From Sandaracinus amylolyticus (GTDB lineage Bacteria > Myxococcota_A > Polyangia > Polyangiales > Sandaracinaceae): a DNA stretch of 64,000 nt. The stretch is from assembly GCF_000737325.1 (NCBI RefSeq), contig NZ_CP011125.1, forward strand, positions 1-64,000. The letters run 5' to 3'. Every line of letters starts with the position of its first letter. Position 1 is the first letter of the stretch. The notes beneath the pieces were generated by a model that ran no database searches, had not been told where the DNA came from, and saw only the letters and a list, made by a program, of their open reading frames with translations. Position numbers and translations under genes: made by a program. Positions 20,980 to 32,420 of the stretch are shown here, piece after piece.

Positions 20980-22995
20980 ATGGCCGACACGCGCAAGGAC
21001 AAGCGCGCCGACGTGTCGCTGAAGGTCCGCTACAAGAGCGCGACCATCGACGAGTTCATCGAGCAGTACGCGAAGGACATCAGCCGAGGCGGCGTCTTCA
21101 TCAAGAGCAAGAGCCCGATGCCGGTCGGGACGCTGCTCAAGTTCGAGATCCAGCTCAAGGACGAGAGCCCGCTGATCCACGGCGTCGGCCGCGTGGTGTG
21201 GAAGCGCGAGGCGAGCGACTCGAGCGACTCGCCGAGCGGCATGGGCATCAAGTTCATCCGCATGGATCCCGAGTGCCGCGTGATGGTCGACAAGATCGTC
21301 GTGCAGCGCGGCGAGGCGCCCGGGCAGTTCGAGGCGGGCGCGGAGGCGAGCGCGGTCGGTGGCGCGGCGCACGTGGGCGCCGACGAGAAGAAGACGAGCG
21401 CGCTGCCGGCCGCCAAGTCGTCGAGCGCGCCGTTCTTCCCGACCGCGGGCCCGACCGAGGCGGAGCTGCCGCGCCCCGAGGACCGCACGCAGGTGCGCCA
21501 CGCGAGCGAATTCCTCGCGTCGGCGCTCGCGGAGGCGGGCGGGGACAGCGAAGCGGCGCGCGAGGCGGAGCGCAAGGCCGAGGAGGCGCGCAAGCGCACC
21601 GAGGAGATCGAGCGCGAGCGCGCCGCGCAGCGCGCGAAGGAAGCAGAGCGCGAGCGGCTCGAGGCCGAGGCCCGCGACAAGGCGGAGGCCGAGCGCGCCG
21701 CGAAGGAGAAGGCGGAGCGCGAGAAGGCCGAGGCCGCGGAGAAGGCGGCGAAGGACAAGGCCGAGCGCGAGAAGGCCGAGAAGGCGGCGAAGGAGAAGGA
21801 GGCCGCGGCGGCGAAGGCGAAGGCCGAGCTCGGCACCGCGAAGACCGAGATCGCGCCGTCGACCAAGAAGTCGGATCCCGCGCCCGCGAAGAAGAGCCCG
21901 GCGTCGGGCGAGGTGAAGCCGGCCGCGAAGAAGCCGGAGAGCGCGCGCCCGGTCGCGGCTGCCGCGATCTCGACGGATCGCCCGCCGCCGGTGGAGGAGC
22001 CGAAGTCGTACGTGCTGCCCGCGATCGTCGGCGTGGTCGCCGTCGTCGCGCTCGGCGCGTTCTTCATGACCCAGGGTGGATCGAGCGAGACGCCCGAGAC
22101 GACGCCGCCCCCCGAGACCGCGGCCGCGCCGACGCCGCCGCCCGAGGAGCCGAGCGCCCCCGAGCCGGTCGTCGCAGCAGAAGAAGAAGGCGCGCCCGCC
22201 GAGGTCACTGCCCTCGAGGAAGCAGCGCAGGGCGAGCTCCTGGCCGCGGAGGCCGCGCCCGAGCCGAGCGCGGAAGAGCCCGCGGCGCCGGCCGTCGCGC
22301 CGGCGCGCTTCCGGGTCGAGACCACGCCCCCGGGCGCGACCGTGCGCGTCGACGGCGCGGAGCGCGGTGTCTCGCCGGTCGAGGTCGAGGCGCCGGTGGG
22401 CACCGCGGTCACGATCACCGCGGCGCTCGCGGGTTATCGAGAGGGCACGCAGCAGGTCACGCCGACCGCGTCGCAGCGCCCCGTGCGCCTGACGCTCGCG
22501 GCGATGCCCTACGTGATCGAGGTGACGACCACGCCGCCGGGTGCGCGGGTCCGCGCGGGCGCGCGCACCGCGACGACGGGCGGGGGCGCGCCGAGCCGTA
22601 TGACGGTCGGGCGCGCGACGGCGCCGATCGCGGTGACCGCGTCGCGCAGCGGCTACGAGGACGCGACGACGACGATCGCGCCGACCGCGTTCGCCGAGCG
22701 CGACGGCGAGATGGTCGCGACGGTCTCGCTCACGCTCACCGAGCGGCCGCAGGCCGCGACGCCGCCGCCGACCGCGACGCCGCGCACCCCGCGCGCGCCG
22801 CGCGAAGCTGCTGCGGCCGACCCCGGCGGTGAGAGCGCCGGTGGCGGTGAAGCGGCCGCCGGCGGTGGTGAGTCGAGCGGCGGTGGTGCCGAGCCCGCGG
22901 CCGAGCCCGCGCGTCCCGAGCCCGCCCCCGAGCCGGCGCCCGCGCCGGCGGCGGAGGAGCCCGGGGAAGCACCGCCCGAGAACCCGTTCGGCTGA
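20980..22995 (+). CDS. PilZ domain protein with coiled coil, membrane helix and PEGA repeats
   Basis: The start MADTRKDKRADV carries the PilZ RxxxR motif (R5-R9), and DISRGG (33-38) supplies the D-x-S-x-x-G motif, so the first 110 residues should bind c-di-GMP. A long Ala/Glu/Lys/Arg coiled coil (about 190-310), a basic Pro/Ala linker, one membrane helix (VLPAIVGVVAVVALGAFFM, about 345) and a Pro/Glu-rich stretch follow. At least one PEGA-like domain (FRVETTPPGATVRVDGAERG) and a second, weaker copy come next, then a Pro/Ala/Gly-rich end. I infer an envelope protein whose cytoplasmic side senses c-di-GMP. SD CGGAGG lies 9 nt before ATG 20980. Confidence 0.88.
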   Translation: MADTRKDKRADVSLKVRYKSATIDEFIEQYAKDISRGGVFIKSKSPMPVGTLLKFEIQLKDESPLIHGVGRVVWKREASDSSDSPSGMGIKFIRMDPECRVMVDKIVVQRGEAPGQFEAGAEASAVGGAAHVGADEKKTSALPAAKSSSAPFFPTAGPTEAELPRPEDRTQVRHASEFLASALAEAGGDSEAAREAERKAEEARKRTEEIERERAAQRAKEAERERLEAEARDKAEAERAAKEKAEREKAEAAEKAAKDKAEREKAEKAAKEKEAAAAKAKAELGTAKTEIAPSTKKSDPAPAKKSPASGEVKPAAKKPESARPVAAAAISTDRPPPVEEPKSYVLPAIVGVVAVVALGAFFMTQGGSSETPETTPPPETAAAPTPPPEEPSAPEPVVAAEEEGAPAEVTALEEAAQGELLAAEAAPEPSAEEPAAPAVAPARFRVETTPPGATVRVDGAERGVSPVEVEAPVGTAVTITAALAGYREGTQQVTPTASQRPVRLTLAAMPYVIEVTTTPPGARVRAGARTATTGGGAPSRMTVGRATAPIAVTASRSGYEDATTTIAPTAFAERDGEMVATVSLTLTERPQAATPPPTATPRTPRAPREAAAADPGGESAGGGEAAAGGGESSGGGAEPAAEPARPEPAPEPAPAPAAEEPGEAPPENPFG

Positions 22996-24090: not shown

Positions 24091-24100
24091 TAGGCGCGTT

Positions 24101-24260
24101 GTTCCGAGCCGGGACGCGATTTTTGGCGAGAAATCGCGTTTTTCCGAGCCGGGACGCGATTTTTGGCGACAAATCGCGTTTTTCCGAGCCGGGACGCGAT
24201 TTTTGGCGAGAAATCGCGTTTTTCCGAGCCGGAACGCGAGCTCTGGCGGGACATCCCATT
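24101..24260 (+). repeat. 40-bp tandem repeat array of terminator-like hairpins
   Basis: Three near-identical 40-bp units (24101-24140, 24141-24180, 24181-24220) are followed by a degenerate fourth. Each of the first three contains ACGCGATTT and AAATCGCGT, a perfect 9-bp stem with an 8-nt loop, followed on the plus strand by a run of T. The array fills the gap between convergent genes. It could act as a multiple transcription terminator. The differences between copies (GAG versus GAC in the loop) suggest duplication of one unit. Confidence 0.9.
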
Positions 24261-24289: not shown

Positions 24290-24733
24290 TCACCACCTCT
24301 TCACGATCCGCACCCTCGTCCCGACCCCCACCTCGCTCTCCACCACCATCCCGTCCGCGAGCCGCCTCACCGCGCCGAGCCCGATCCCGAGCCCCGCGCC
24401 CATCGGCTTCGCCTCGCCCGGCTCGCGCTGCCGTCCCTGGGACCATCCGTCGCGCATCGCGTCCTCGATGCTCGCGATCCCCGGGCCCTCGTCGCGCACC
24501 TCGACCTCGATGCCGTCCTCGATGACCCGCAGCTCGAGCCGACCCTCGCCGCCGCCGTGGCGCACCGCGTTCGAGAGCAGCTCGGTCACGCACAGCACGA
24601 GCTCGCCCGACGCGCGCATCCCGAGCCCGTTCCGCCGCGCGAACGCGCCCGCTTCCGCGCCGCACGCGAGCCGGTCCGCCTGGCTCGTGCAGCGCATCGT
24701 CAACGCGGCCCTGTTCCGTGGCCTCGCGCTCAT
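24290..24733 (-). CDS. RsbT-like serine kinase (GHKL anti-sigma/switch kinase)
   Basis: The 147-residue protein has the RsbT fold: N box ELLSNAVRHG, G1 RDEGPGIASIEDAMRDG and G2 GAGLGIGLGAVRRLAD, ending VESEVGVGTRVRIVKRW. This is close to RsbT of the sigma-B stressosome, which phosphorylates STAS-domain proteins. Starting at ATG 24697 instead would give 135 residues, the normal RsbT length, and would remove the near-overlap with the divergent gene. It belongs with the second RsbT, the PP2C phosphatase and the GAF-STAS protein of the same cluster. Confidence 0.82.
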   Translation of the reverse strand: MSARPRNRAALTMRCTSQADRLACGAEAGAFARRNGLGMRASGELVLCVTELLSNAVRHGGGEGRLELRVIEDGIEVEVRDEGPGIASIEDAMRDGWSQGRQREPGEAKPMGAGLGIGLGAVRRLADGMVVESEVGVGTRVRIVKRW

Positions 24734-24747
24734 GCAGTCTGTGCCCC

Positions 24748-25308
24748 GTGCTCCGTGGCCTCGCGCATCTCGTTCGTCCGTTCCCCGGTGAGACCGCCTG
24801 CGGCGACGACGTCGTCGTGGTGCGCCACGAGACCGCGATCCTGATCGCGGCGATCGACGCGCTCGGTCACGGCGAGAAGGCCGAGGAGGTCGCGCGCGCC
24901 CTGCGCGCCTCGCTCGAGAGCGCCGACGTCTCGCTCGGCCTGCGCGCGCTCTTCGACCGTGCCCACACCGCGCTCCGCGGCTCCCGCGGCGCGGCGATGA
25001 CCGCGGTGCTCGTGCGCGCCAGCGAGGTCGACGCGTGCGGCGTCGGCAACGTCGCGCTGCGCGCCGAGGGGCTCGCGCTCTCGTTCGTCCCCACGCCCGG
25101 CGTCGTCGGGGTGCGCATGCCGAGGCTCCGTCCCGTGCAGTGCGCGCGCGCCGCGGGCGCTCGCATCGTGCTCGCGACCGACGGGATCTCCACCCGCATG
25201 TCGCTCTCGGACACGCGCAGCCGCGACGCGGCCCAGGCGTGCCGCGAGCTCTTCGATCGTCACGCCAAGGATCACGACGACGCCACGCTCGTGGTGATCG
25301 ACCTCTGA
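24748..25308 (+). CDS. RsbX/SpoIIE-like PP2C serine phosphatase
   Basis: The protein of about 186 residues (GTG 24748) is a short PP2C domain. GDDVVVVR supplies metal-binding Asp residues, AAIDALGHGEKAEEVARAL is the D-x-LGHG motif of RsbX and SpoIIE, and VLATDGIST and DHDDATLVVIDL are the closing motifs. RsbX resets the stressosome by removing phosphate from RsbR and RsbS proteins. The gene lies between two RsbT-like genes on the other strand. Its 5' end is only about 14 nt from the divergent RsbT-like start. Confidence 0.82.
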   Translation: MLRGLAHLVRPFPGETACGDDVVVVRHETAILIAAIDALGHGEKAEEVARALRASLESADVSLGLRALFDRAHTALRGSRGAAMTAVLVRASEVDACGVGNVALRAEGLALSFVPTPGVVGVRMPRLRPVQCARAAGARIVLATDGISTRMSLSDTRSRDAAQACRELFDRHAKDHDDATLVVIDL

Positions 25309-25315
25309 GCCGGGC

Positions 25316-25981
25316 TCACCGCGCGCTCCCTGCGCTCGTCGGATCGAGCACGACCGTCGCCTCGACGCGGGTGCCGCGCGGGCTCGTCCTCACGTCGAAG
25401 TCGTCGACCAGGCGCTTCACGCCGACGAGCCCCTTGCCCATGCCGGTCTTGCTCACGTAGCTCCCGTCGAGCACCGACTTCAGGTCCGCGATCCCCGGAC
25501 CTTCGTCCTCGACCACGATGCGCAGCGCCGCGCCGCCGCGCAGCGGCGTCAGCGTCACCACGCCGCGTCTTCCTCCCGAGGGCCCTCCCGAGGGCACGGC
25601 GTAGAGGCTCACGTTGCGCGCGAGCTCGCTGACCGCCGTCGCCACGCGCTGCATCACGAGCGCGCGCGAGCCCATCGTCTGGCAGAGCTGACGCGCCGCG
25701 AGGCGCGCCTCGATCACGTCGCGCTCCTCCGCGATCTCGATGCGCACCTCGGTCGCCTCGCTCGGCGCGAGCGCGAGGATCTGCCGCTTGATCGTGTCCT
25801 CCAGGCGCGCGCCTCCGAAAAGACGAACGCCGCGCTCGAGCGCCTCGACCAGATCGGGCAAGCGTCCGACGTCGATCGCGCGGTCGCCTCCGGCCGCGCG
25901 GGCGAGCATCGCGCGCGCATGGAGCGGCGAGATGTGCTGCTCGAGGATCGCGAGCACCGCGCTCTGCGCGACCGTGCTCAA
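25316..25981 (-). CDS. RsbT-like kinase with extra N-terminal helical domain
   Basis: The 221-residue protein starts at a TTG that overlaps the stop of the GGDEF-EAL gene as TTGA, so it is translationally coupled to it. About 75 helical residues (AVLAILEQHISPLHARAMLARA...) precede the RsbT kinase domain: N box VSELARNVSLYA, G1 VEDEGPGIADLKSVLDGSYVS, G2 GMGKGLVGVKRLVDDF and the end SPRGTRVEATVVL. The extra domain is absent from ordinary RsbT and may dock it to a partner. It probably phosphorylates the STAS domain encoded at 29529-30662. Confidence 0.85.
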   Translation of the reverse strand: MSTVAQSAVLAILEQHISPLHARAMLARAAGGDRAIDVGRLPDLVEALERGVRLFGGARLEDTIKRQILALAPSEATEVRIEIAEERDVIEARLAARQLCQTMGSRALVMQRVATAVSELARNVSLYAVPSGGPSGGRRGVVTLTPLRGGAALRIVVEDEGPGIADLKSVLDGSYVSKTGMGKGLVGVKRLVDDFDVRTSPRGTRVEATVVLDPTSAGSAR

Positions 25982-27318
25982 CGCGCGCCTCCGGGCGGCA
26001 GGCGCGGCACCTGGCTCGTGCCGCGCCCGAAGAGCCAGCCCTGCAGCAGATCGCACCCGAGGCTCGTGAGCGCGTCGCGCTCGCCCTCGGTCTCGACCCC
26101 TTCGGCGACGACGATCTGTCCGCGCTGGTGCGCGAACTCGACGAGCGCCTGCACCAGGGTGCGCCGCGCGGCGGACCGATCGAGGTCGGCGATCAGCGCG
26201 CGATCGAGCTTCACGTAGTCGAGGTCGAGCTCGGACATCCAGCGCAGCGTCGCGTAGCCCGCGCCGAGATCGTCGAGCGCGACCCGGAAGCCGAGCGCGT
26301 GCAGGCGGTCGATCGCGGCGCGCGCCGCATCGAGGCTCGAGAGGCGCGCGCACTCGCCGATCTCGAGCACCACGCGAGGCGCGATCGCGCGCAGCTCTCC
26401 CTCGGGATCGACCAGCGTCGGGTCGGCGAGCTCGTGCGGGTGCAGGTTCAAGAAGAGCGGCACGAGGCTGGGATCGCGGCGCAGCGGCTCGGTCGCGACG
26501 CTGCGCACGAGCCGCCCGATCTCCCAGACCACGTCGGACGCCGCGGCGGCGGCGAAGAGCGCGGCGGGCGAGGCGTAGCGCTCGAGGCGAGGCCGGCAGA
26601 GCGCCTCGCACGCGACGACCTCGTGATCGCCCGCGCGCACGATCGGCTGGTGCACGAACGCGAGGGCGCGCGCTCCGCGGCGCTCGAGCAGCGCGTGCAC
26701 CACGCGCTCGGCGATGCCGCACGCGCCGTCGTGCGCGGGCTGGTAGGCGAGCGTGCAGTTGCGGCCTTCGCGCTTGCCGACGCGCAGCGCGGCGCGCGCG
26801 CTCACGACGAGCTCGCGCGCGTCGGGCGCGTCCTCGGGGAACGTCGCGACGCCGGCCGAGGCGGAGCAGGTGTGGCCGGCGAGGAAGCGCAGCGACGCGA
26901 TCGCGGCGCGCTTGCGATCGGCCCACGCGACGGCCTCCTCGCGCGACCATCCGGCGAGCAGCGCGGCGAACTCGTCGCCGCTCGAGCGCACGACGACCGG
27001 CGCGCCGCCGCGGGCGGGGATGTCCTCGTCGACCGCATCGAGCGCGCGCGCGATCTCACGCATCACCTCGTCGCCCGAGGCGTGGCCGACGATGCGGTTC
27101 ACCTCGCCGAAGCGATCGAGGTCGAGCACCACGACCGACACCGGTTGATCCCGCGCTTCGGAGCGCGCGATCGCACGCTCGAGCCACGCGTGCAGCGCGT
27201 GGTGCCCCGGCAATCCGGTGAGCGGGTCGACCCCGGCGCGCGCGAGCCCTGGCGGGATCGAGCGGAGGGCCGAGGGCTCGGGCACCTCGGGCTCTCGCTT
27301 CGGAACGTGCAGTGTCAT
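25978..27318 (-). CDS. GGDEF-EAL domain protein (c-di-GMP turnover)
   Basis: The 446-residue protein has no membrane segment. The GGDEF half (about 35-190) carries VVVLDLDRFGEVNRIVGH and RSSGDEF, where Ser replaces the first Gly of GGDEF. The EAL half (about 200-440) has CEALCRP, NLHPHEL, EIGE in place of ELTE, LDDLGAGYATL, VKLDRALI, AEGVET and QGWLFGRG, so most metal and substrate residues are present. It is more likely a phosphodiesterase than a cyclase. ATG 27318 is chosen because a longer GTG start at 27423 would sit inside a palindromic control site. The 3' end overlaps the RsbT-like gene by 4 nt. Confidence 0.85.
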   Translation of the reverse strand: MTLHVPKREPEVPEPSALRSIPPGLARAGVDPLTGLPGHHALHAWLERAIARSEARDQPVSVVVLDLDRFGEVNRIVGHASGDEVMREIARALDAVDEDIPARGGAPVVVRSSGDEFAALLAGWSREEAVAWADRKRAAIASLRFLAGHTCSASAGVATFPEDAPDARELVVSARAALRVGKREGRNCTLAYQPAHDGACGIAERVVHALLERRGARALAFVHQPIVRAGDHEVVACEALCRPRLERYASPAALFAAAAASDVVWEIGRLVRSVATEPLRRDPSLVPLFLNLHPHELADPTLVDPEGELRAIAPRVVLEIGECARLSSLDAARAAIDRLHALGFRVALDDLGAGYATLRWMSELDLDYVKLDRALIADLDRSAARRTLVQALVEFAHQRGQIVVAEGVETEGERDALTSLGCDLLQGWLFGRGTSQVPRLPPGGAR

Positions 27319-27406
27319 CGTGGGCGCGGCCCCCTTCGCAAAGGAAACGCCAGCCCTCGTTGGCGGGGAAATCGAAGATTCGTCACGCGTCCGGGGGAGG
27401 ACGGAG

Positions 27407-27423
27407 GTGTCCACGGTGGACAC
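27407..27423. promoter_or_regulatory. Palindromic site upstream of the GGDEF-EAL gene
   Basis: GTGTCCA-CGG-TGGACAC is a perfect 7-bp inverted repeat with a 3-nt centre, 89-105 nt before the GGDEF-EAL start. A nearly identical site lies at 30753-30770. It is a candidate operator or enhancer for a dimeric regulator such as the Rec-AAA-HTH protein encoded next door. Confidence 0.5.
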
Positions 27424-27442
27424 TCCTGTCCGCGGCGCGAGC

Positions 27443-29425
<1,983 letters not shown>

Positions 29426-29528
29426 CGCGGGCATCCTACCAGCCGTCGGTCGCGAGACGGACGGCAGGTGCGTGGTGGCTGGCGGCTCCCGGCGGTGCGC
29501 CGGATGTCGCGTGCTGGGCATGTCGTGA

Positions 29529-30662
29529 TCAGCGGCGGGCGGTGCTCGTGCTCTCGTGCGCGCGCGTCTGCTCGCGGCGCGAGCGCTCGCTCTGCAGGGC
29601 GTGCAAGAGGCCCTGCTTCAGGTTGCGCAGCGTCTCGAGCTCGCCGAAGTCCGCGCCGAGATCGACCAGCGTCTGCGCGACCAGCGGCTGCAGGCCCGTG
29701 AGCACGCAGCGCGCGCCGAGCAGCTCGACCGCGCGCGCGAGCTTCACCAGGCGATCCGCGGTCCCGGTGTCGACCACGTCGACGCCGGTCAGGTCGATCA
29801 GCACGAAGCGCGCGTTGCGGCGCGCGACGTCCTCGAGCACGCGCTCGACGAGCATCGCGGCGCGCTCGGAGTCGACGACGCCGATCACCGGCACCGCGAG
29901 CACGTCCTCCCACAGCTCGAGCACCGGGCTCGAGAGCTGCTCGACCGCGCCGCGCAGGCGGCGGATGAGCTCCTGGTTCTCGGCGTTGCGCGCCGCGAGA
30001 TCACGCGTGCGCTCCGCGACCTCCTGCTCGAGCCGCGCCTTGTGCTCCTCGAGCTCGCGGTTCGCGGCGCGCATCGCGTTCTCGGCGGCGAGGCGGTCAC
30101 GATCGTCCAGGGTGCGCGCGACGAGGTCCGCGATGCTCGCCGCGAGCTGCTCTTCCTCGCGCGAGAACGTGCGCTGCGCGCCGACGTGCTCGTGGCAGAG
30201 CACGCCGACCACCTTGCCGCGCCGGCGGATCGGCGCCTCGAGCATCGAGTGGATGTCGAGCGGCTCGAGGTAGCCCGTCTTGAACTCGCGCGTCGCGGCG
30301 TGGTGGCGCGCGTCGCTCGCGGCGATCGTGCGATCCTCGGCGAGCGCCGCGAAGTACGCGGGATAGTCCGCCGCCTTGAGCACGAAGCCCGCCGAGTGCG
30401 CGGCCTTCGAGCGCTCGAAGAGGTCGACGAGCTCGATCTGCGTGCGGTGCTCGTCGAAGAACCAGATCGACGCGCGCTCGGTGCCGATGCCGTGCGTCGC
30501 GGCCTCGGTGAGGAGGCGCCACGCGCGCTGGGGATCGGAGCCGTCGAGCTCGGTGCTCTTCGCGAGCGAGAGCAGGATCTGGTTGTGGCGGCGCAGGACC
30601 GCGTCGCGCGGGTCGTCCGTCGGGGGCGAGGACGGCCGGGTGATCACGTTCGGCGGCGACAT
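29529..30662 (-). CDS. RsbR-like GAF-STAS stressosome protein
   Basis: The 377-residue protein has a GAF sensor domain (about 30-195), a coiled coil rich in Glu and Arg (about 200-255) and a C-terminal STAS domain. The STAS domain includes LIDLTGVDVVDTGTADRLVKLARAVELLGARCVLTGLQP, whose LTG and DT/LTG threonines match the sites RsbT phosphorylates in RsbR. No RsbS-like single STAS gene is seen nearby. The GAF domain is clearly related to the one in the divergent histidine kinase (shared CHEHVG). An excellent SD AAGGAGGT lies before ATG 30662. Confidence 0.88.
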   Translation of the reverse strand: MSPPNVITRPSSPPTDDPRDAVLRRHNQILLSLAKSTELDGSDPQRAWRLLTEAATHGIGTERASIWFFDEHRTQIELVDLFERSKAAHSAGFVLKAADYPAYFAALAEDRTIAASDARHHAATREFKTGYLEPLDIHSMLEAPIRRRGKVVGVLCHEHVGAQRTFSREEEQLAASIADLVARTLDDRDRLAAENAMRAANRELEEHKARLEQEVAERTRDLAARNAENQELIRRLRGAVEQLSSPVLELWEDVLAVPVIGVVDSERAAMLVERVLEDVARRNARFVLIDLTGVDVVDTGTADRLVKLARAVELLGARCVLTGLQPLVAQTLVDLGADFGELETLRNLKQGLLHALQSERSRREQTRAHESTSTARR

Positions 30663-30752: not shown

Positions 30753-30770
30753 TCTGTCCACCTGGACAGA
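30753..30770. promoter_or_regulatory. Palindromic site between the GAF-STAS and GAF-PAS kinase genes
   Basis: TCTGTCCA-CC-TGGACAGA is a perfect 8-bp inverted repeat with a 2-nt centre, in the 147-nt space between divergent genes. It shares the core TGTCCA...TGGACA with the site at 27407-27423. Confidence 0.55.
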
Positions 30771-30809: not shown

Positions 30810-32420
30810 ATGGGGAGCGACGACACCGCGACGCCGGACACCGAGCTCCCGCGCCTCCGCGCGATGCTCGAGGCGCTCGGGCACATGTCGCGCAGCTCGC
30901 GCAGCCAGGGCGCCGACGTGCGCGCGTCGTTCCGCGCGATCACCGAGGTCGCGGCGACCACGCTCGACGTGGCGCGGGTGGGGATCTGGCTCTTCGACGA
31001 CGCCGAGCGCAGCACGCTGCGGTGCGCGTGCCTCTTCGATCGCAGCACCGGCACGCACACCGAAGGGCTCGTGATCACGCGCGGTGATCACCGCGTGTAC
31101 TTCGAGGCGCTCGACTCGGATCGCATCATCGACGCGCACGACGCGCGGAGCGATCCGCGCACGTCGGCGCTGCGCGAGAGCTATCTCGACCACTACGGCG
31201 TGGGCGCGCTGATCGACGCGCCGGTGGTCGGCGGCGTGGGCTCGGTGGGCGTCGTCTGCCACGAGCACGTCGGGCCGCCGCGCACGTGGAGCGCGGAGGA
31301 GCAGCTCTTCGCGGGCTCGATCGGCGACATGGTCGGGCTCGCGATCGAGAGCGCGCGGAGGCGCGAGGCCGAGACGATGCTGCGCGAACGCGAGACCGAG
31401 CTGCGGCTCGCGCTGGGCGCGGCACGGATCGCGATCTGGCGGTGGTGGCCTGCGCGCGACGAGCTCGACGTGTCGGACTCGTTCGGCGCGCTGCTCGCGA
31501 GGCCGCGCGGCTGGGCTCCGTCGCGCCTCGAGGAGCTGCTGCGCGCGATCGATCCCGCGGATCGCGACGCGGTGCGCGCGGCGTTCGACGCGTCGCGCAC
31601 CGAGGGCCGCGAGCTGCGCGTGGAGTGTCGCGCGCGCACGCCGCACGGCGGGACGGTGTGGCTCGAGCTGCGCGGCGATCACGACCTCACGGGCACCGGG
31701 CGCGAGCACAGCGTGCGCGGCGTCGCGCTCGCGGTGACCGACCGCAAGCAGCTCGAGCAGCGGCTCGCGCACGGGCAGCGCATGGAGGCGGTGGGTCGTC
31801 TCGCGGGCGGCATCGCGCACGACTTCAACAACGCGCTGATGACGATCGCCGGGCAGATCGAACTGCTGGAGGGCTCGTTCACGAGCGAGTGGCAGCGCGC
31901 GCGCGCTGCCGACATCGAGCGCGCGGTGTTCCAGGCCGGGCACATGACGCGGCAGCTGCTCGCGTTCGCGCGACGCGAGCCCACCGAGGCGCGGGTGATC
32001 GACGCGTCGGCGCGGGTGCGCGAGCTCGCGCCGATGCTCGAGCTGCTGGTCGGCGCGCGGGTGCGCATCCGGCTCGACGCGCGGCGCGCGCTGCCGGTGT
32101 CGATCGTGCCGGTGCACTTCGATCACCTCGTCGTGAGCCTCGTCGCGAACGCGCGCGATGCGCTCGGCGACGGGGGCACGCTCGAGGTCTCGACGTCGAA
32201 CGACACGCTCGACGAGTCGCGCGCCGCGGCGCTCGGGCTGCCGCCGGGACGCTACGTGCGCGTCGCGGTCGAGGGCGTCGCGGGCACCGCGATCGCGCCG
32301 GGCGTGCTCGAGGCGAGGCTCGGCGGCGAGGGCGCGGTCGCGACGATCGCGGAGGACGGTCGGCTGAGCGCGTACTTCGCGATGGCGAGCACGAGCGACG
32401 GCGCCGGTCACTCGGGGTAG
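30810..32420 (+). CDS. GAF-PAS histidine kinase-like protein lacking ATP-binding boxes
   Basis: The 536-residue soluble protein has a GAF domain (about 25-185), a PAS domain (about 190-310), a dimerisation region with H box GRLAGGIAHDFNNALM and an N box VSLVANARDALG. After that, where DTGxGM and GTGLGL should follow, it reads VRVAVEGVAGTAIAPGVLEARLGG and then AEDGRLSAYFAMAST before stopping. Both glycine boxes are lost, so ATP binding and autophosphorylation look unlikely. It may be a pseudokinase that controls the neighbouring receiver protein as a phosphatase or scaffold. It is divergent from the GAF-STAS gene, sharing the palindrome at 30753. Its 3' end overlaps the convergent lipoprotein by 13 nt. 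Confidence 0.83.
   Translation: MGSDDTATPDTELPRLRAMLEALGHMSRSSRSQGADVRASFRAITEVAATTLDVARVGIWLFDDAERSTLRCACLFDRSTGTHTEGLVITRGDHRVYFEALDSDRIIDAHDARSDPRTSALRESYLDHYGVGALIDAPVVGGVGSVGVVCHEHVGPPRTWSAEEQLFAGSIGDMVGLAIESARRREAETMLRERETELRLALGAARIAIWRWWPARDELDVSDSFGALLARPRGWAPSRLEELLRAIDPADRDAVRAAFDASRTEGRELRVECRARTPHGGTVWLELRGDHDLTGTGREHSVRGVALAVTDRKQLEQRLAHGQRMEAVGRLAGGIAHDFNNALMTIAGQIELLEGSFTSEWQRARAADIERAVFQAGHMTRQLLAFARREPTEARVIDASARVRELAPMLELLVGARVRIRLDARRALPVSIVPVHFDHLVVSLVANARDALGDGGTLEVSTSNDTLDESRAAALGLPPGRYVRVAVEGVAGTAIAPGVLEARLGGEGAVATIAEDGRLSAYFAMASTSDGAGHSG

What the first reader, a model, noticed from the sequence alone, without database searches (positions are those of the whole stretch)
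24290..30662. Candidate stressosome-like module joined to c-di-GMP control
Two RsbT-like kinases, an RsbX-like phosphatase, an RsbR-like GAF-STAS protein, a GGDEF-EAL protein coupled to one RsbT by a TTGA overlap, and a sigma-54 activator lie within 6.4 kb. RsbS is missing. The coupling suggests RsbT released from the STAS protein could act on the GGDEF-EAL protein or with it. Stressosomes linked to diguanylate cyclases are known in a few other bacteria, but this gene set with an EAL domain and a sigma-54 regulator is not one I recognise.
Basis: partly seen in the sequence, partly recalled or inferred. Interest (0 to 1): 0.7.

Follow-up and report, generated by a model that had tools for sequence, protein, structure and literature searches.

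The report
RsbS-less stressosome module with c-di-GMP gene
A myxobacterium (probably Sandaracinus) carries a rearranged copy of a known bacterial stress-sensing switch that has lost one core part, apparently still supplied by a sister copy elsewhere in the genome, and has gained a c-di-GMP gene and a sigma-54 regulator; it is a new variant of a known kind rather than a new system.

Summary
The gene set is real. On the minus strand lie RsbR (GAF-STAS), a REC-PAS-sigma-54 activator, a GGDEF-EAL protein and RsbT. RsbX lies on the opposite strand, followed by a second RsbT-like ATPase (T'). The order is conserved, with all genes under purifying selection, in one other genome of the same genus; no GGDEF-EAL ortholog was found elsewhere among 317 genomes of the class.

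RsbS is absent here, but the genome encodes two. One lies in a paralogous module at 5.888 Mb that has RsbS but no RsbX. The window module has RsbX but no RsbS. A more distant relative holds both in one locus. The best reading is a split stressosome working in trans.

The GGDEF-EAL protein has no sensor or RsbU-like domain, so direct RsbT control is unsupported though not excluded. A genome-unique palindrome and a sigma-54-like promoter precede it; a sister palindrome and a better sigma-54-like site precede rsbR. Transcriptional coupling through the local activator is more likely. The neighbouring kinase lacks its ATP-binding boxes in both species.

Stressosomes linked to c-di-GMP are already published. 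Verdict: new variant of a known kind.

The parts
29529..30662 (-). RsbR: GAF sensor + STAS; phospho-acceptor threonines in VVDTGTAD and VAQTLVD
   Evidence: Pfam GAF 8e-15 and STAS 5e-13; best PDB matches are RsbR proteins, E 7.5e-26; falls in the RsbR clade of the STAS tree; threonines
27443..29521 (-). Sigma-54 activator, REC-PAS-AAA+-HTH_8 (start perhaps ATG 29434 or 29425); loop motif GAFTSA instead of GAFTGA
   Evidence: Sigma54_activat 5e-63, Response_reg 8e-22, HTH_8 2e-12; alignment to LuxO
25978..27318 (-). GGDEF-EAL protein (ORF open from GTG 27423; likely start ATG 27318); RSSGDEF and all EAL metal-ligand motifs kept; no input domain
   Evidence: EAL 8e-46, GGDEF 5e-26; motifs in both species; 91% identical ortholog only in G008
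25316..25981 (-). RsbT kinase with about 75-aa helical N-terminal extension; TTG start overlaps the GGDEF-EAL stop
24718..25308 (+). RsbX feedback phosphatase (PP2C), convergent with rsbT
   Evidence: 3zt9 E 5e-15, RsbX 3w40 E 2.5e-8; omega 0.32 on this strand
24290..24733 (-). T': second stand-alone HATPase of the type that in many relatives is next to, or fused with, RsbX
   Evidence: HATPase_c_2 3e-15; (HATPase+PP2C in one ORF in many loci)
30810..32420 (+). Divergent GAF-PAS-HisKA protein, predicted pseudo-kinase: H-box kept, G1/F/G2 ATP boxes missing; GAF 36% identical to that of RsbR
   Evidence: omega 0.28
27408..27422 (.). Operator-like palindrome TGTCCA-N3-TGGACA before the GGDEF-EAL gene; exact pattern unique in the 10.3-Mb genome and in G008
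27338..27352 (-). Sigma-54-like -24/-12 element TGGCGTTTCCTTTGC; core kept in L060
30755..30768 (.). Operator-like palindrome TGTCCA-N2-TGGACA between rsbR and the kinase gene; unique in the genome, degenerate in L060
30696..30711 (-). Sigma-54-like element CGGCATAAGGCGTGCT before rsbR (third best of 127,970 window positions); core kept in L060

Best explanation
This is a stressosome-derived partner-switching module that has split across the chromosome. Shown: RsbR, RsbT, T' and RsbX are here without RsbS, and a paralogous module at 5.888 Mb has RsbR, RsbT, RsbS and T' without RsbX. Inferred: the window RsbR, sensing through its GAF domain, assembles with RsbS made by the 5.888-Mb module (perhaps also with the orphan RsbR at 3.557 Mb) and holds RsbT. 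On a signal RsbT phosphorylates RsbR and RsbS and is released, and the window RsbX resets the complex. Inferred: the REC-PAS sigma-54 activator binds the two TGTCCA-N2/3-TGGACA palindromes and drives the rsbR-activator and GGDEF-EAL-rsbT transcripts. c-di-GMP output would then be set mainly by how much GGDEF-EAL protein is made, since that protein has no input domain. The next target of RsbT remains unknown.
For: Every other RsbT locus read that has an RsbR-type STAS also has an RsbS-clade STAS; only the window and its ortholog L060 do not. RsbX-like proteins occur only twice in the genome, window and L011, none at L010. L094 in a same-order genome holds activator, T, S, R, R, X (opposite strand) and T' in one locus; its RsbS is closest to L010 RsbS (56%) and its RsbX to the window RsbX (44%), against 32-36% for the L011 copies. 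Window RsbR and RsbT group with L010 and L094. The same complementarity holds in G008 (L060 no S, L064 no X). Palindromes unique in the genome, sigma-54-like elements in both gaps, with palindrome-to-element spacing of 65 and 77.5 bp, conserved in L060. RsbR paralogs encoded elsewhere joining one stressosome is established in B. subtilis (PMC7522486).
Against: No interaction data. The L011 module encodes its own RsbS and RsbX and could equally supply either. The split is seen in only two close genomes. The sigma-54 matrix was written from general knowledge; the site before the GGDEF-EAL gene is modest (reached in about 1% of equal-length stretches) and would leave a leader of only about 8 nt, without the AAGGGG ribosome-site-like run. 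The rsbR palindrome is degenerate in L060. The activator has GAFTSA, not GAFTGA. The kinase that should phosphorylate the activator lacks its ATP boxes.
Confidence: 0.5

Rival explanations
1. RsbT released from RsbR binds or phosphorylates the GGDEF-EAL protein directly and so switches c-di-GMP synthesis or breakdown.
For: Translational coupling of the two genes in both species; no other candidate target in the operon; precedent in Moorella thermoacetica, where RsbT controls a GGDEF protein (Quin 2012, cited in PMC4976288 and PMC12143880).
Against: In Moorella the GGDEF protein carries an RsbU_N-like domain; here none is found and only about 30 residues precede GGDEF. The RsbT extension is shared by RsbTs without GGDEF neighbours, such as L010, L011 and L094.
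Confidence: 0.2
2. The module is a self-contained RsbS-less switch: RsbR alone holds and releases RsbT, with no part from other modules.
For: RsbS is absent in both species although everything else is conserved, and RsbR keeps both threonines.
Against: RsbR here is an ordinary RsbR-clade protein; in B. subtilis RsbT is bound to the antagonist RsbS (PMC7522486); RsbS of the same sub-lineage is available in the genome.
Confidence: 0.15
3. The histidine-kinase, activator and GGDEF-EAL set and the Rsb set are neighbours by chance, with no shared function.
For: The association is confined to one genus; in the sister L010 module the sigma-54 activator is of another type.
Against: Interleaved order (RsbR-activator-GGDEF/EAL-RsbT) kept at about 90% identity in a second species with constraint on every gene; RsbR and the kinase share a related GAF; matching operator-like sites before both transcripts.
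Confidence: 0.12

Closest known systems
Gram-negative RsbRSTX stressosome modules with downstream two-component or GGDEF/EAL genes (Vibrio, Chromobacterium, Herbaspirillum; PMC9237108)
   Same: RsbR, RsbT and RsbX homologs adjacent to c-di-GMP and two-component genes; no sigma-B; most downstream proteins lack RsbU_N
   Different: RsbS not in the locus; RsbX on the opposite strand; activator and GGDEF-EAL genes inserted between rsbR and rsbT; sigma-54 activator; GAF rather than globin sensor
Moorella thermoacetica stressosome with a GGDEF protein (Quin 2012, as described in PMC12143880)
   Same: RsbT-type kinase linked to a c-di-GMP enzyme; the window RsbX best matches PDB 3zt9, a SpoIIE-type phosphatase
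   Different: There the GGDEF protein has RsbU_N and GAF domains and RsbS is present; here GGDEF-EAL has no input domain
Bacillus subtilis / Listeria stressosome (RsbRA-D, YtvA, RsbS, RsbT, RsbX)
   Same: RsbR STAS with both threonines; several RsbR paralogs against fewer RsbS genes
   Different: No RsbU, RsbV, RsbW or SigB in the locus; RsbS encoded megabases away from this rsbR
Paralogous module L010 (5.882-5.895 Mb, own genome) and L094 (same order)
   Same: Same RsbR/RsbT sub-lineage, sigma-54 activator next to the module, T'
   Different: They have RsbS; their activator is PAS-GAF-sigma54; no GGDEF-EAL

Membership tests
RsbRST/X stressosome module | RsbR: sensor domain + STAS with phospho-threonines | tested here: met
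RsbRST/X stressosome module | RsbT kinase with intact N and G1 boxes | tested here: met
   SELARN and D-x-G-x-G invariant; fold matches SpoIIAB and RsbW
RsbRST/X stressosome module | RsbS (STAS-only antagonist with DS motif) in the module | tested here: not met
   No second STAS in the window; RsbS present in trans at 5.888 and 8.182 Mb
RsbRST/X stressosome module | RsbX feedback phosphatase | tested here: met
RsbRST/X stressosome module | Assembly into a mega-dalton RsbR:RsbS:RsbT particle | not testable with these tools
   needs biochemistry or microscopy
RsbT-controlled GGDEF effector (Moorella type) | RsbU_N-like RsbT-binding domain on the effector | tested here: not met
   Pfam and NCBIfam find only GGDEF and EAL
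Sigma-54 enhancer-binding protein | AAA+ sigma-54 domain, receiver, HTH_8, GAFTGA loop | tested here: inconclusive
   Domains met; loop reads GAFTSA
Active histidine kinase (partner of the activator) | H-box plus ATP-binding N, G1, F, G2 boxes | tested here: not met
   H and N boxes present, G1/F/G2 missing in both species

The most novel reading that the evidence does not exclude
Two chromosomally distant, individually incomplete stressosome modules (one lacking RsbS, one lacking RsbX) form one obligate mixed stressosome that feeds a self-contained sigma-54/c-di-GMP circuit whose operator exists only at this locus, with a histidine pseudo-kinase as co-sensor.
Probability: 0.3. Interest if true: 0.65.

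Novelty: new variant of a known kind. Interest (0 to 1): 0.45.

Why it matters
If the modules do complement each other, stressosome subunits can be shared between loci and outputs swapped while the antagonist stays elsewhere, which bears on how these signalling hubs evolve and why one genome keeps several. The linkage to a sigma-54 activator, with a genome-unique operator, would give stressosomes a transcriptional output without sigma-B. Both claims are directly testable.

Tried and rejected
- A hidden RsbS in the locus: no second STAS domain in any frame.
- RsbX ORF as an antisense artefact: rejected by omega 0.32 on its own strand and PDB matches.
- RsbT extension as an RsbU_N domain or a c-di-GMP-specific adaptation: Pfam and a PDB profile search found nothing convincing for it and it is common in related RsbTs. 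AlphaFold gives four helices at moderate confidence, and Foldseek matched only the ATPase part convincingly.
- GGDEF-EAL/stressosome linkage outside the genus: hits at or below 42% identity in nine other genomes of the class; several carry REC domains, and none has STAS or stand-alone HATPase genes in the flanks fetched, which are only about 1.5 kb.
- Sigma-70 promoters: none by consensus. A strict sigma-54 consensus with one mismatch found none in the window; the sites proposed are weaker matches.
- A wider regulon of the palindrome: one-mismatch sites (5 more in each of G000 and G008) barely exceed the control.
- Papers on RsbRST plus sigma-54: nothing relevant. Papers with stressosomes and myxobacteria gave no study of such loci.
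The genome-contig scan with RsbT gave mostly ordinary RsbRSTX + two-component loci or unrelated ATPases.

Full report
WHERE. The window is bases 1-64000 of a single 10,327,335-bp contig.

OBSERVATION. Read along the minus strand the order is: RsbR (GAF-STAS, 30662-29529), REC-PAS-sigma54-HTH8 activator (29521-27443), GGDEF-EAL (to 25978), RsbT (25981-25316), then RsbX on the opposite strand (24718-25308) and T' (24733-24290). A divergent GAF-PAS-HisKA gene (30810-32420, plus) starts 147 bp from rsbR. One other genome of the genus (G008) has the identical arrangement (L060) at about 90% DNA identity. Protein identity is 84-93% and omega 0.20-0.42 for every gene, against 1.2 for an antisense control frame. 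The 4-base overlap between GGDEF-EAL and rsbT is TTGA here and ATGA there. No other genome among 317 of the class has an ortholog of the GGDEF-EAL protein; the next best matches are at or below 42% identity, several carry REC domains, and none has stressosome genes in the short flanks fetched.

IS RsbS MISSING? From the locus, yes; from the genome, no. I annotated about 50 loci (the window, the other modules of this genome and of relatives, and RsbT-like loci drawn from a search of 377 Myxococcota genomes) with home-made profiles. The STAS tree splits into an RsbS clade (47 rows) and an RsbR clade (53 rows), support 98. Every RsbT locus with an RsbR-type STAS also has an RsbS-clade STAS, except the window and L060. 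The window genome has two further modules. L010 (5.88 Mb) reads activator (PAS-GAF-GAF-sigma54), RsbR (PAS-STAS), RsbT, RsbS, T'. L011 (8.18 Mb) reads RsbR, RsbT, RsbX, RsbS, T'. There are also orphan RsbR-type proteins at 3.557 and 10.103 Mb.

COMPLEMENTARY HALVES. RsbX-like proteins occur only at the window and L011. So L010 has RsbS without RsbX, and the window has RsbX without RsbS; the same holds for the orthologs L064 and L060 in G008. A same-order genome (L094) keeps activator, RsbT, RsbS, two RsbRs, an opposite-strand RsbX and T' in one stretch. Its RsbS is closest to L010's (56%), its RsbX to the window's (44%), and its activator is orthologous to L010's (47% over 796 aa). Window RsbT and RsbR group with L010 and L094 (RsbT: 13-row set with support 95; RsbR: 7-row set with support 90). 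The simplest reading is that the window and L010 modules descend from one L094-like type and now share parts. That they share parts in the cell is inference. L011 could also supply RsbS. Precedent for RsbR paralogs encoded elsewhere joining one complex: B. subtilis (PMC7522486).

c-di-GMP PROTEIN. EAL motifs (EALCR, FLNLHP, LEIGE, DDLGAGY, KLDR, AEGVET, QGWLFG) are intact and GGDEF reads RSSGDEF, the same in both species. I did not test activity. With start ATG 27318 only about 30 residues precede GGDEF: no sensor and no RsbU_N. In Moorella the RsbT-controlled GGDEF protein carries an RsbU N-terminal domain (PMC12143880). RsbT here has an N-terminal extension of about 75 residues, predicted as four helices (pLDDT about 60-80 there), but so do RsbTs in modules with no GGDEF gene. 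A direct RsbT-GGDEF contact is therefore possible but has no sequence support.

TRANSCRIPTIONAL LINK. TGTCCA-N3-TGGACA occurs once in the whole genome, at 27408-27422 just before the GGDEF-EAL gene, and once in G008 at the same place. TGTCCA-N2-TGGACA also occurs once, at 30755-30768 between rsbR and the kinase gene; this second site is degenerate in L060. Downstream of each palindrome, on the coding strand, lies a sigma-54-like element: CGGCATAAGGCGTGCT (third best of 127,970 positions in the window) and TGGCGTTTCCTTTGC (13th best; the only TGGC-N7-TTGC in the window). Sites as good occur in 0.3% and 1.1% of equal-length stretches (the matrix is from general knowledge). Palindrome-to-element spacing (65 and 77.5 bp) is the same in L060 to within half a base. 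Inference: the local activator regulates both transcripts. Weak points: the leader of about 8 nt before the GGDEF-EAL gene, the GAFTSA loop, and no shown binding.

PSEUDO-KINASE. The divergent kinase keeps H-box and N-box but lacks the G1, F and G2 boxes in both species while under constraint. Its GAF region is 36% identical to that of RsbR over 191 aligned residues including flanks. Both may sense related signals; how the activator is phosphorylated is open.

NOVELTY. Stressosome modules linked to c-di-GMP proteins and two-component genes are described in Gram-negatives, with GGDEF and EAL among the domains of the figure (PMC9237108). New here, as far as the held literature shows, are the split of RsbS and RsbX between modules, the sigma-54 link (also seen with another activator at L010, L064 and L094), the inserted gene order, and the genome-unique operator-like site. 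I rate it a new variant of a known kind, interest 0.45.

Noticed in passing
30810-32420: Histidine kinase lacking G1/F/G2 ATP boxes in two species yet under purifying selection: a conserved predicted pseudo-kinase next to two stand-alone HATPase proteins.
   Followed up: partly
20980-22995: PilZ-PEGA protein (+ strand) with RxxxR and DxSxxG motifs, a possible c-di-GMP receptor a few kb from the GGDEF-EAL gene; its PilZ part is 96% identical in L060 (13957-14355).
   Followed up: partly
25316-25981 (residues 1-75): Uncharacterised helical N-terminal extension shared by many RsbT proteins of related modules; no convincing Pfam or PDB match found.
   Followed up: partly
25570-25610: Window RsbT has a 9-residue Gly/Ser-rich insertion after SELARNVSLYA that is absent from the 90% identical G008 ortholog.
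   Followed up: no
L010 1-3350, L064, L094 5168-7594: Related PAS-GAF-sigma54 activators sit beside related stressosome modules; the L010 protein has GAIAGA in place of the GAFTGA loop.
   Followed up: partly
24100-24240: Short repeated TTCCGAGCCGGGACGCGATTTTT units with terminator-like hairpins between the T' gene and the TonB_C-like gene.
   Followed up: no
24718-24733: rsbX and T' start codons overlap head to head; rsbX is also divergent from T' in L060 and L094.
   Followed up: partly
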